Part shown: piece by piece, positions 22,521-45,189 of the stretch
Position numbering within the stretch: the stretch's first letter is position 1
Layout of the letters: each line of letters begins with the position of its first letter
Assembly (NCBI GenBank): GCA_016285265.1
Contig: JAEEQL010000002.1
Location: forward strand, 1-62,026
Direction: 5' to 3'
From: Lachnospiraceae bacterium
GTDB taxonomy: Bacteria > Bacillota > Clostridia > Lachnospirales > Lachnospiraceae
DNA length: 62,026 bases
Translations under genes and position numbers: made by a program
The notes under the pieces: generated by a model
Told to the model about the DNA's origin: nothing
Database searches by the model: none
The model's input: the letters and a program-made list of their open reading frames with translations, nothing else

Positions 22521-22838
22521 ATGGCACTCGTAGTAAACCTTGAGAATTTTGAAAAAGAAGTACTTGAATCCTCACTCCCCGTACTCGTTGACTTTTTCGC
22601 GGACTGGTGCGGTCCCTGCAAGATGATGTCACCCGTCGTCGATCAGATCGGCGATGAGATGAGCGCGCAGATCAAGGTCTGCAAGTGCAATATTGATGAT
22701 AACGATGCCATTGCTGAAAAGTATGACATCATGAGCATTCCGAATTTCATTCTTTTCAAGGACAGAAAGCCCGCAGCAAACCAGGTCGGAGCAGTCAGCC
22801 CCGATCAGTTTAAAAAATGGATCGAGGAGAATATCTGA
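22521..22838 (+). CDS. trxA: Thioredoxin
   Basis: VDFFADWCGPCKMMSPVVDQI. Confidence 0.96.
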   Translation: MALVVNLENFEKEVLESSLPVLVDFFADWCGPCKMMSPVVDQIGDEMSAQIKVCKCNIDDNDAIAEKYDIMSIPNFILFKDRKPAANQVGAVSPDQFKKWIEENI

Positions 22839-23791
22839 TGGCAAGTGTCAAACTGACCAAAGTTATCGAGAGGATGAATCTTACGAATCTCACTCCCGAA
22901 GTAGACGTAACAAGGATCCGGATCACGCAGCCCGATATCAACAGACCCGCACTTCAGATCGCGGGATACTTCGAATATTTCGACCCCTCGCGTATCCAGA
23001 TCATCGGATACGTCGAGTATTCCTATATGGAAAGTGCGCTGGATGACGAGCAGAAATTCGAGGCATACGATAAGTTCCTCGAGCATCCCATGCCCGCGAT
23101 CATCTTCTGCAGGGGACTTAAGCCCAACGAGATCTTCATGGAGCTTGCGAAGAAGTACAGGATCCCCGTACTCCTTACCAATGAAGCAACATCGGGATTT
23201 ACCGCCGATCTTATCAGATGGCTCAACGAACAGCTGGCGCCCATGATCAGCGTTCACGGCGTTCTTGTGGACTGTTACGGTGAAGGCGTCCTGATAACGG
23301 GCGAGAGCGGAATCGGTAAATCCGAGGCAGCTCTGGAACTCATCAAGAGAGGACACCGTCTGGTCACGGACGATGCGGTGGAACTCAGGAAGCTTTCGGA
23401 TACGCTCCTTGTGGGAAGTGCTCCGGATATAACCAAGCATTTCATAGAGCTCAGGGGTATCGGTATCGTTGATGTAAAGGCACTGTTCGGTGCATCGAGC
23501 GTCAAGGACCAGCAGCAGGTCGATCTGGTCATCAGGCTTGAGGACTGGAACAAGGACAAGGATTACGACAGGCTCGGACTTGAAGAGAACTACATCGAGT
23601 ATCTCGGAGTCAGGGTGGTGTGCCATAACATTCCCGTAAGACCCGGCCGTAACCTTGCCGTCATATGCGAGACCGCAGCGGTCAACTACCGTCAGAAGCA
23701 GATGGGTTACAATGCTACTGAGGAACTTTATAAGAGAGTCCAGGCTTCCCTTGCGAAGAAACATGCAGAGGAAGAGGAGGGAGAAGAATAA
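22838..23791 (+). CDS. hprK: HPr kinase/phosphorylase
   Basis: Walker A GESGIGKSE; HRLVTDDAVEL; ELRGIGIVDVKALFG; starts by TGATG overlap with trxA. Confidence 0.96.
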   Translation: MASVKLTKVIERMNLTNLTPEVDVTRIRITQPDINRPALQIAGYFEYFDPSRIQIIGYVEYSYMESALDDEQKFEAYDKFLEHPMPAIIFCRGLKPNEIFMELAKKYRIPVLLTNEATSGFTADLIRWLNEQLAPMISVHGVLVDCYGEGVLITGESGIGKSEAALELIKRGHRLVTDDAVELRKLSDTLLVGSAPDITKHFIELRGIGIVDVKALFGASSVKDQQQVDLVIRLEDWNKDKDYDRLGLEENYIEYLGVRVVCHNIPVRPGRNLAVICETAAVNYRQKQMGYNATEELYKRVQASLAKKHAEEEEGEE

Positions 23792-27611: not shown

Positions 27612-27872
27612 ATGATCACAAGAACCGTTAACGTTAAACTGCCCAAGAATCTTTCAGCAAGCCCTGTCGCACTTCTTGTACAGAAAGCAAGCAAGTTCGA
27701 CAGCATCATCTATATCGAGTCCGGCGAAAGAAAGGTAAATGCCAAGTCCATCATGGGAATGATGAGCATCGCTCTCGATGAGGGAGATGAACTCATGATC
27801 AGATGCGACGGAGATGATGAGAGTGACGCTCTCAGCACCGTAGAGGGTTTCCTTACCGGCGTACAGGCATAA
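27612..27872 (+). CDS. Crh-like HPr paralog lacking the active-site His15
   Basis: HPr-fold length and motif VNAKSIMGMMSIAL; active-site segment reads NLSASPV where HPr has GIHARPA; downstream of whiA as in Bacillus crh. Confidence 0.9.
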   Translation: MITRTVNVKLPKNLSASPVALLVQKASKFDSIIYIESGERKVNAKSIMGMMSIALDEGDELMIRCDGDDESDALSTVEGFLTGVQA

Positions 27873-42205: not shown

Positions 42206-43558
42206 TCACCTTTCCGCGGACATTATCTCCTCGGTAAGTATTCCCGAGAGCTTAAGGTCGACCGCATCGCCGGGTGACAGACTCAGATCTGACACCGCTG
42301 TCATAATATAGTCGGGCGTGTGTCCGATCATGTATTTCTTTCCGAAGATGACCTGCTGCTCCTCGATAAGAACCTTTTCGGTCCTTCCGATGTGGCGCTT
42401 CATATATTCGCGAGTCATCTCTATCTGGGTATCGATGAGCTTTGCGCTTCTTTCGGTCTTTACCTCTTCGGATACCTTGTCGGACATCTGAGCCGCCTTG
42501 GTATTCTTTCTCGGAGAGAACTTGAATATGTGCATATCCGCAAAACCGACCTTCTTTACAAAGGCGAGAGTCTCTTCGAATTCCTCGTCCGTCTCTCCGG
42601 GAAAGCCTGCAATGACATCCGTGGTTATCGCCGGATCGTCGAAATATTTCCGTAAGCAGAGAACGCTCCGGTAATACTCGTCCGTGGTATAGTGCCTGTT
42701 CATTCTCTTCAGTGTCGCATCGCATCCGCTCTGAAGGGACAGATGGAAGTGCGGGCAGAGGTTCTTAAGCTTTGAAAGGCGCTCGGCATTTTCCTCTGTG
42801 ATGATCCTGGGCTCGACGGAGCTTAAGCGGATCCTTTCGAGACCGGGGATCTTCGCAATCTCCTCGACAAGGTCTATGAGTTTGCTCTTTCCGCCGTAAT
42901 CCCCCGATGTGCTTCCGTTTTCATCAAGGTCGATACCGTAGGATCCGACATGGATTCCGGTAAGGACTATCTCGGAGCAGCCCTTTTCTATGAGGCCGCG
43001 GATCTCTTCACATATGTCTTCCTTTGCGCGGGAGCGCACCCTTCCTCTTGCAAGGGGGATAGCGCAGTAGGTGCAGAACTGGTTGCAGCCGTCCTGGATC
43101 TTGACGAAGGTGCGGACACGGTCGGTTAAACTGCTTAAGGTCATATCCTCATAGGAGGAGGGGACGCCGAGGTCATCCATTACGATCTTCTTTTTGCTGC
43201 GGCCGGCGGCGTAGTCCTCGATGATGGGGATAAGCTCGGCCTTATGGTTGTTGCCGATGCATATGTCAACGAGCGGATCCTTCAAAAGTGCGTCGCTTCC
43301 GGTCTGTACATAGCAGCCGACCGCAACTACGATGGAGTCCGGGTTCAGCTTCTTGGCACGGTGGAGCATCTGCCTGCTCTTCCTGTCGGCGATATTTGTT
43401 ACCGTGCATGTATTGATGACATATACGTCCGAAATCTGTGAAAACTGCACAATTTCATAACCTGCTGATTGTGCATTTTGAAGCATTATTTCGGTTTCGT
43501 ATGCATTCACCTTACAACCGAGGTTGTGGAATGCTATAGTTTTGGGCATTTTTCTCAT
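42206..43558 (-). CDS. mtaB: tRNA t6A37 methylthiotransferase (radical SAM MTTase)
   Basis: HNLGCKVNAYETE; VINTCTVTNIADRKSRQML; CNQFCTYCAIPLARGRVRSR. Confidence 0.95.
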   Translation of the reverse strand: MRKMPKTIAFHNLGCKVNAYETEIMLQNAQSAGYEIVQFSQISDVYVINTCTVTNIADRKSRQMLHRAKKLNPDSIVVAVGCYVQTGSDALLKDPLVDICIGNNHKAELIPIIEDYAAGRSKKKIVMDDLGVPSSYEDMTLSSLTDRVRTFVKIQDGCNQFCTYCAIPLARGRVRSRAKEDICEEIRGLIEKGCSEIVLTGIHVGSYGIDLDENGSTSGDYGGKSKLIDLVEEIAKIPGLERIRLSSVEPRIITEENAERLSKLKNLCPHFHLSLQSGCDATLKRMNRHYTTDEYYRSVLCLRKYFDDPAITTDVIAGFPGETDEEFEETLAFVKKVGFADMHIFKFSPRKNTKAAQMSDKVSEEVKTERSAKLIDTQIEMTREYMKRHIGRTEKVLIEEQQVIFGKKYMIGHTPDYIMTAVSDLSLSPGDAVDLKLSGILTEEIMSAER

Positions 43559-43592
43559 AAAAGTTTGGTTCTCTTTAAGGCTCCGCCAGTCT

Positions 43593-43621
43593 TGACAATT
43601 CTTTAACAGTCAATTACTATT
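43593..43621 (+). promoter_or_regulatory. Promoter TTGACA-N17-TACTAT upstream of HPr-like gene
   Basis: Consensus -35 and 17-bp spacer; CCTCG-N6-CGAGG inverted repeat (43623-43638) overlaps the predicted TSS. Confidence 0.7.
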
Positions 43622-43676
43622 ACCTCGTAGCAACGAGGAAAAGAAAAAATATCAGAGAAATAAGGAGGTAACTCAA

Positions 43677-43907
43677 ATGAAAACAGTAAAGATTTCTCTT
43701 AATTCTATTGACAAGGTAAAGAGTTTTGTAAATGACATCACCAAGTTCGAATATGATTTCGATCTTGTATCCGGAAGATACGTAATCGACGCTAAGTCCA
43801 TCATGGGTATCTTCAGCCTCGATCTTTCCAAGCCCATCGACCTCAACATCCACACCGAGGGCGGAGCTGATGATGTTCTCGAGGTTCTTAAGCAGTATCA
43901 GGTATAA
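43677..43907 (+). CDS. HPr-like protein with degenerate active-site loop (no His15)
   Basis: IDAKSIMGIFSLDL matches the HPr Ser46 region; segment before it (NSIDKVKSFVNDITKF) has no catalytic His and appears about 2 residues shorter. Confidence 0.85.
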   Translation: MKTVKISLNSIDKVKSFVNDITKFEYDFDLVSGRYVIDAKSIMGIFSLDLSKPIDLNIHTEGGADDVLEVLKQYQV

Positions 43908-43924
43908 TTATCCCCGTTGCTTCA

Positions 43925-43958
43925 AAGACCGAAGGATGATCCCTTCGGTCTTTTTTTT
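43925..43958 (+). terminator. Terminator after HPr-like gene
   Basis: GACCGAAGG-N6-CCTTCGGTC followed by eight T. Confidence 0.93.
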
Positions 43959-45189
43959 ATTTTCCTATCACGATGATCTCGTCGGTCTCATAAGCCTTTG
44001 CCAGCAGGCCTTCAATGATGTCGTCCAGCTTGTGCTCGTGCTTCTGGATCACGGTCCTGCTCGGGTTGGTGACGGGGTGCTTGGCCACGAATATGGTACA
44101 GCAGTCCTCGTAAGGAAGGATGGAGGTTTCGTAGGTTCCGATCTTCTCGGATATCTCGACGATCTCCTGCTTATCGAACGCGATGAGGGGCCTGAGGACC
44201 GGAAGGGTGCATACCTCGTTGGTGGAAACGAGGGAGGCGAAGGTCTGTGATGCGACCTGGCCGACGCTCTCGCCGGTAACGAGCCCGTGGCATCCGTTCT
44301 CATAGGCGAGATGCTCTGCGATCCTCATCATGTATCTGCGCATTATTATGGTCAGCTCGTCATGCGGGCAGTTCTCATAGATGGCAAGCTGGATATCGGT
44401 AAAGTTGATGACGTGGAGATTGATGGGGCCCGTGTATGCGGAGATGATCTTCGCAAGGTCCACGACCTTCTGCTTTGCCCTTTCGGAGGTATAGGGAGGT
44501 GCGTTGAAATAGACCGCATCGAGCGATACACCGCGCTTGGAGATCATATAGCCCGCAACGGGGGAATCGATTCCTCCGGAAAGAAGGAGCATTCCTTTTC
44601 CGTTTGTTCCCACGGGCATTCCGCCGGGTCCGGGAATTGACTCGGAGTAGATGTATGTCTTGTCGCGAAGCTCCACATTAAGGAAGATATCGGGCTTTCT
44701 TACATCGACCTTAAGTGAGGGGAATGCATCAAGGATGGCTTCTCCGAGGTCTGCCGCAACCTCCATGGAATCGAGGGGATATCCCTTGTTGCCTCTTCTG
44801 CAGACGACCTTGAAGGTCCTGTCCGTATCGCCGTACATATCGCCCCAGTATTTAACGGACTGTTCGCGGAGCTGCTCCTGGCCTTCGGTCTTGTACACGA
44901 TGACCGGGCAGATGTAGACGATCCCGAAGATGTGCTTAAGCTTTTCGACAACCTCGTCGAAATCAAAGGAAGCCCCGTTTTTGTCTTCGGAGCACTCAAG
45001 GTAGATCCTTCCGGGCGTTTTCCTTGTGAGGAATCTGCCGGAAATGGTCTTCATTGCGGCGTTTATGTGAGCGACAAGGGCGTCCTCGAAAAGATACCTG
45101 TTATTGCCCTTGATGCCTATTTCCGCGTACTTGATCAAAAATGTGTTGAATATCTGTTTGTTCATGTCCGACATTACATACTGGTACAA
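43957..45189 (-). CDS. thiI: tRNA uracil 4-sulfurtransferase
   Basis: LIKYAEIGIKGNNRYLFE; GKGMLLLSGGIDSPVAGYMISKRG; start may be internal (ATG at 45174 or 45165). Confidence 0.94.
   Translation of the reverse strand: MYQYVMSDMNKQIFNTFLIKYAEIGIKGNNRYLFEDALVAHINAAMKTISGRFLTRKTPGRIYLECSEDKNGASFDFDEVVEKLKHIFGIVYICPVIVYKTEGQEQLREQSVKYWGDMYGDTDRTFKVVCRRGNKGYPLDSMEVAADLGEAILDAFPSLKVDVRKPDIFLNVELRDKTYIYSESIPGPGGMPVGTNGKGMLLLSGGIDSPVAGYMISKRGVSLDAVYFNAPPYTSERAKQKVVDLAKIISAYTGPINLHVINFTDIQLAIYENCPHDELTIIMRRYMMRIAEHLAYENGCHGLVTGESVGQVASQTFASLVSTNEVCTLPVLRPLIAFDKQEIVEISEKIGTYETSILPYEDCCTIFVAKHPVTNPSRTVIQKHEHKLDDIIEGLLAKAYETDEIIVIGK

What the first reader, a model, noticed from the sequence alone, without database searches (positions are those of the whole stretch)
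43677..43907. Second HPr-fold protein without catalytic His, under its own strong promoter
Sequence: IDAKSIMGIFSLDL matches the HPr Ser46 motif, but the preceding active-site region (SLNSIDKVKSFVNDITKF) has no GIHARP and looks about two residues shorter. The gene stands alone with TTGACA-N17-TACTAT and a strong terminator. Inference: with the crh-like gene at 27612 and hprK at 22838, this part of the genome encodes the kinase and two regulatory-only substrates but no catalytic HPr, pointing to HprK signalling uncoupled from sugar transport.
Basis: partly seen in the sequence, partly recalled or inferred. Interest (0 to 1): 0.6.

Follow-up and report, generated by a model that had tools for sequence, protein, structure and literature searches.

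The report
Loop-less HPr-like partner of HprK
A tiny, extremely conserved and probably abundant protein of clostridia looks like the sugar-transport protein HPr with its transport site cut out and only the regulatory serine kept; it almost always occurs with the kinase HprK and often without any sugar phosphotransferase system, so it is probably a pure on/off messenger of cell energy state.

Summary
ORF 43677-43907 (76 aa) is a real gene (inside the genus, differences fall almost only at third codon positions). It has a consensus-like promoter, a near-perfect ribosome site and a strong terminator. It is predicted to have an HPr fold (pLDDT 91; top PDB matches all HPr/Crh) but lacks the active-site loop with His15/Arg17. 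The Ser46 equivalent (Ser41) is invariant.

At family level the idea of HprK signalling uncoupled from PTS gains support. The ortholog group occurs in 215 of 393 sampled Clostridia genomes and is rare elsewhere in the phylum. 209 of the 215 also have HprK; 120 of those lack enzyme I. In 12 near-complete genomes with HprK and without enzyme I, loop-less proteins are the only HPr-family hits. No genome of 30 tested (this one and those 12 included) has a protein passing NCBI's CcpA model.

Best explanation: a PTS-free HPr-fold phospho-switch, phosphorylated by HprK on Ser41, signalling to an unknown, probably non-CcpA target. Phosphorylation and target are inferred. I found no description of this loop-less group in the open-access papers searched: a new variant of a known kind.

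The parts
43677..43907 (+). Loop-less HPr-fold protein (76 aa), the finding itself
   Evidence: PTS-HPr 24.6 bits; AlphaFold pLDDT 91; all best PDB matches are HPr/Crh
43794..43799 (+). Codons of invariant Lys40-Ser41 (HPr Lys45-Ser46 equivalent), the presumed HprK site
   Evidence: Invariant in 56 of 56 orthologs and in a 13-member set with paralogs, Crh-like and HPr; N-cap of helix 42-46 in the model
43592..43620 (+). Sigma-A type promoter TTGACA-N17-TACTAT
   Evidence: consensus-like promoters upstream of 147 orthologs score above shuffles (mean 9.6 against 8.5 of 12)
43662..43669 (+). Ribosome binding site AAGGAGGT
   Evidence: AGGAGGT with 6-7 of 7 matches in 127 of 147 orthologs
43924..43960 (+). 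Intrinsic terminator
   Evidence: terminator-like stem behind 120 of 147 orthologs
42206..43558 (-). mtaB-like tRNA methylthiotransferase, divergent neighbour
   Evidence: Name from the sequence (MiaB/MtaB type); neighbour in 146 of 161 ortholog loci
43957..45189 (-). thiI-like gene, convergent neighbour
   Evidence: Name from the sequence; neighbour in 140 of 161 ortholog loci
22817..23791 (+). HprK, HPr(Ser) kinase/phosphorylase, presumed writer and eraser
   Evidence: TIGR00679 365 bits, cut-off 240; intact P-loop GESGIGKS and IELRGIG motif
27612..27872 (+). Crh-like protein behind whiA: Ser at positions 15 and 17, KSIMG kept
   Evidence: best PDB match B. subtilis Crh

Best explanation
The gene makes a probably abundant, dedicated signalling protein with the HPr fold. 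Its PTS phosphotransfer site (His15-Arg17 loop) is deleted, so enzyme I cannot use it. HprK phosphorylates Ser41 (the Ser46 equivalent) when ATP and glycolytic intermediates are high and removes the phosphate when inorganic phosphate is high. The phosphorylated or the free form then binds a target through the conserved IMGIFSLD helix surface. The target is unlikely to be classical CcpA. It is thus a stand-alone HprK output, more radical than Crh, running in parallel with the Crh-like protein and the His15 HPr of the same cell. Shown here: predicted fold, missing site, invariant Ser, strong expression signals, near-obligate co-occurrence with HprK, independence from enzyme I. Inferred: phosphorylation by HprK, abundance, effector. 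The metabolite control of HprK is established knowledge from other Firmicutes.
For: Fold: AlphaFold pLDDT 91, pTM 0.79; Foldseek matches 1-40 are all HPr or Crh, including HPr in the HprK complex 1kkl. Invariant A39-K40-S41, G44-I45, S47-L48-D49 in 56 orthologs; Ser41 caps helix 42-46. Co-occurrence in Clostridia: short+/HprK+ 209, short+/HprK- 6, short-/HprK+ 102, short-/HprK- 76 (odds ratio 26); five of the six exceptions lie in genera whose other sampled members have HprK. No association with enzyme I (91 with, 124 without; p 0.61). 12 genomes of 95-99% completeness (G062, G096, G107, G129, G186, G208, G293, G360, G399, G429, G456, G482) have HprK, no enzyme I, and no PF00381 hit other than loop-less proteins. 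It is more conserved than the Crh-like protein (79 against 59% mean identity, same 18 genomes) and the His-HPr (82 against 70%, same 10 genomes). Loop-less proteins form one side of a 100/100 branch.
Against: No phosphorylation data. Co-occurrence counts are not corrected for relatedness. 102 sampled genomes have HprK without this protein, so it is not required by HprK. Loss of the Arg17 loop removes contacts that P-Ser-HPr uses (established structures of HPr complexes), so a changed binding mode is needed. hprK is not next to the gene (about 20 kb away in the window).
Confidence: 0.72

Rival explanations
1. It is a Crh-equivalent co-repressor that acts through a CcpA-like LacI-family regulator, as Crh does in Bacillus.
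For: KSIMGIFSLDL is close to the Crh/HPr surface that binds CcpA. Some carriers, this one included, have LacI-family proteins with partial CcpA scores (195.8 bits here, cut-off 442). A Crh-like protein is proposed to act on CcpA homologues in Clostridium cellulolyticum (PMC3656788).
Against: No CcpA above the curated cut-off in any of 30 genomes; nine of the 12 genomes with only loop-less proteins lack even a hit at 1e-40. The Arg17 region is missing. Caveat: the cut-off may be strict for clostridial CcpA.
Confidence: 0.2
2. It is a decoy or buffer: a highly expressed HprK substrate that titrates the kinase and tunes Ser phosphorylation of HPr and the Crh-like protein, with no target of its own.
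For: Strong promoter, ribosome site and terminator throughout the family; co-occurrence with HprK.
Against: It persists in 12 genomes where no other HPr-family substrate was found; it is more conserved than its full-length paralogs.
Confidence: 0.1
3. The HPr fold has been re-used for a function unrelated to HprK; the invariant Ser41 is only a helix cap and co-occurrence reflects shared ancestry.
For: The association is not corrected for phylogeny; the family has its own conserved features (D29, R34-Y35, H59).
Against: About 51 of 52 families with the protein have HprK in a sampled member, and HprK-less families visible in the output (f29, f34, f44, f56, f64, f65, f69) lack it (counted by eye). 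Conservation is centred on the HprK-recognition motif.
Confidence: 0.15

Closest known systems
Crh (catabolite repression HPr) of Bacillus subtilis
   Same: HPr fold; no catalytic His15; Ser46 motif KSIMG kept; best profile match in the PDB
   Different: Crh keeps the full-length loop with Arg17 and lies behind whiA; here the loop is shortened by about 3-5 residues, the locus is different, identity about 26%, and the cell has a separate Crh-like protein at 27612
HPr (ptsH)
   Same: Fold and Ser46 region
   Different: No His15/Arg17, hence no PEP:sugar phosphotransfer; found in many genomes without enzyme I
Crh-like protein Ccel_0806 of Clostridium cellulolyticum (PMC3656788)
   Same: A proposed regulatory-only HPr relative in a clostridium in which no HPr ortholog or cognate EII was recognised
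   Different: Named Crh-like in that paper, with no loop-less protein in the passages read; its sequence was not compared here
Incomplete regulatory PTS / HprK systems of Gram-negatives (Brucella PMC2937029, Xanthomonas PMC6916182; titles and abstracts seen)
   Same: HPr/HprK-type proteins used outside complete sugar transport
   Different: They rest on His-containing HPr/NPr proteins

Membership tests
HPr-fold superfamily (PF00381) | Profile match above gathering score | tested here: met
   24.6 bits against 23; positions 20-76 of 81 only
HPr-fold superfamily (PF00381) | HPr open-faced beta-alpha fold | tested here: met
   Predicted: AlphaFold pLDDT 91, TM up to 0.77 to HPr structures
HPr (ptsH) | Catalytic His15 with Arg17 (G-[IL]-H-x-R-P) | tested here: not met
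   Loop absent; only His is H59
HPr (ptsH) | NCBIfam PTS_HPr_family cut-off | tested here: not met
   20.4 bits, cut-off 47.9
Crh | Non-His residue at position 15 in an otherwise complete loop | tested here: not met
   Loop shortened
Crh | Ser46 motif | tested here: met
   K40-S41-I-M-G, invariant Lys-Ser
Crh | Gene behind whiA (yvcJKL-crh cluster) | tested here: not met
   Own locus mtaB/short/thiI; the whiA-linked gene is at 27612
Crh | Phylogenetic placement with Crh/HPr | tested here: not met
   Loop-less proteins separated by a 100/100 branch from full-length HPr and Crh-like rows; few columns, B. subtilis Crh itself not in the tree
HprK substrate | Phosphorylated on the Ser46 equivalent by HprK | not testable with these tools
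   Only indirect: invariant motif and co-occurrence
CcpA co-repressor | Binds CcpA; CcpA present | tested here: inconclusive
   No CcpA above cut-off in 30 genomes, only LacI-family partial hits

The most novel reading that the evidence does not exclude
Clostridia possess an ancient HprK output that never touches the PTS: a loop-less HPr-fold phospho-switch that is a main HprK substrate, and in some lineages the only HPr-family one, and that regulates metabolism through an effector other than CcpA.
Probability: 0.45. Interest if true: 0.78.

Novelty: new variant of a known kind. Interest (0 to 1): 0.58.

Why it matters
HprK is usually taught as the regulator of HPr and of catabolite repression through CcpA. 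Many clostridia, gut bacteria among them, have HprK without enzyme I, which raises the question of what HprK does there. This protein is a concrete, testable answer. It also shows HPr's two phosphorylation sites divided over different proteins: in this order several ptsI-linked HPrs have lost Ser46, while the Crh-like and loop-less proteins keep Ser46 without His15.

Tried and rejected
Chance ORF: rejected. A hidden phosphorylatable active-site His: rejected; only H59 in the last strand, and it is Tyr in 3 of 56 orthologs. Naming it Crh: rejected on loop, locus and tree. Weak matches (E 1e-5 to 1e-10) in 24 class genomes were treated as ordinary HPr and not counted as orthologs. Literature searches for this protein in Lachnospiraceae gave nothing specific. 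A complex model with HprK was not possible with single-chain prediction.

Full report
What is there. ORF 43677-43907 (+) encodes 76 residues. It is preceded by TTGACA-N17-TACTAT (43592-43620) and AAGGAGGT (43662-43669) and followed by a 12-bp-stem terminator at 43924-43953. Among near-identical genus orthologs, 4-17 nucleotide differences lie almost all at third codon positions, with 0-2 amino-acid changes, so it is a protein gene under strong purifying selection. In 161 ortholog loci it is its own unit, usually with divergent mtaB (146) and convergent thiI (140). Promoter, ribosome site and terminator features recur across 147 orthologs. High expression is inferred from this, not measured.

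Fold and site. Pfam PTS-HPr matches at 24.6 bits (cut-off 23) but only from profile position 20 on, behind His15. No NCBIfam HPr model reaches its cut-off. The AlphaFold model (pLDDT 91) is matched by Foldseek to HPr and Crh structures in ranks 1-40. The active-site loop is shortened by about 3-5 residues and there is no His15 or Arg17. The only His, H59, lies in the last strand. Lys40-Ser41, at the place of HPr Lys45-Ser46, is invariant in 56 orthologs from about 18 families of the order, and in a 13-member alignment with paralogs, the Crh-like protein and HPr. A tree puts all loop-less proteins on one side of a 100/100 branch from the full-length HPr and Crh-like rows; there are few columns, so inner forks are unsure.

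Genome context. The window holds HprK (22817-23791; TIGR00679 365 bits, P-loop intact) and a Crh-like protein behind whiA with Ser15 and Ser17 (27612). The genome (2.7 Mb, 92% complete) has exactly three PF00381 hits: these two HPr-like proteins of the window and a His15 HPr on contig C114. It has enzyme I with a TSH active-site motif on C75. Enzyme I was found in 30 of the 31 genomes of this genus, and the His15-type HPr match recurs in most of them, so contamination is unlikely.

Distribution. 85 of 97 relatives have a match. In a sample of 393 Clostridia genomes (at least 90% complete), 215 have a strong ortholog (E at most 1e-10), over about 52 families (families counted by eye). In a sample of the phylum (309 genomes) the only matches outside the class came from two families. 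Against HprK: 209 both, 6 protein only, 102 HprK only, 76 neither (odds ratio 26; not phylogeny-corrected). Five of the six exceptions are draft genomes in genera whose other sampled members have HprK. Against enzyme I there is no association (91 with, 124 without, p 0.61), and 120 HprK+ carriers lack enzyme I. In 12 genomes of 95-99% completeness (G062, G096, G107, G129, G186, G208, G293, G360, G399, G429, G456, G482), with HprK and without detected enzyme I, only loop-less PF00381 proteins were found. Recurrence within families f5, f36 and f84 argues against assembly gaps. G360 has an HprK with an intact P-loop (GKSGVGKS).

Division of labour. Among relatives, ptsI-linked HPrs often carry Lys, Arg or Ala at position 46 (for example L105, L113, L120, L127, L136, L137, L141), while most whiA-linked Crh-like proteins carry Glu at position 15 (linkage from coordinates). 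In much of this order, His and Ser phosphorylation thus sit on different proteins. The window's genome is less extreme: its His15 HPr keeps Ser46, but in a KSVLSVLG instead of a KSIMG context.

Mechanism. The simplest reading is an HprK-driven phospho-switch on Ser41 with no PTS role. CcpA as the target is doubtful: no protein passes the CcpA model in 30 genomes, and nine of the 12 genomes above lack even a hit at 1e-40; the cut-off may however be strict for clostridia. The effector is unknown. Phosphorylation and effector are inferences.

Known or new. Nearest relatives are Crh and HPr. [quoted passage not shown] A 2008 survey of PTS proteins in 222 genomes reports that EI and HPr go together while HprK is more limited and does not follow that pattern (PMC2405797). 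I found no description of the loop-less group in the open-access papers searched; subscription papers were not covered.

Noticed in passing
L102, L105, L113, L120, L126, L127, L136, L137, L139, L141, L152, L154: His15 HPrs of relatives, many linked to ptsI, that have lost Ser46 (Lys, Arg or Ala), so they cannot be classical HprK substrates.
   Followed up: partly
L086-L094: More divergent loop-less HPr-like paralogs in Lachnospiraceae and relatives (motif DAKS[FL]LG), in some genomes several copies; nearly all keep Lys-Ser, one (L092) has Cys-Ser.
   Followed up: partly
window 27612-27872: Crh-like protein with Ser at both position 15 and 17; most relatives outside the genus have Glu15-Ala-Arg17.
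   Followed up: partly
L276 (G305, family f77): A HARP-type HPr gene lies next to the loop-less gene, on the opposite strand, in a genome without detected enzyme I.
   Followed up: no
L265-L276: Many Clostridia without detected enzyme I still keep a His15 HPr (GLHARPATFFIQK...KSLLGVLSLG); what would phosphorylate that His is unclear.
   Followed up: no
window 43623-43638: CCTCGTAGCAACGAGG just downstream of the -10 box could form a hairpin at the very 5' end of the mRNA; similar GTAGCA/GTAACA stretches appear in some relatives.
   Followed up: no
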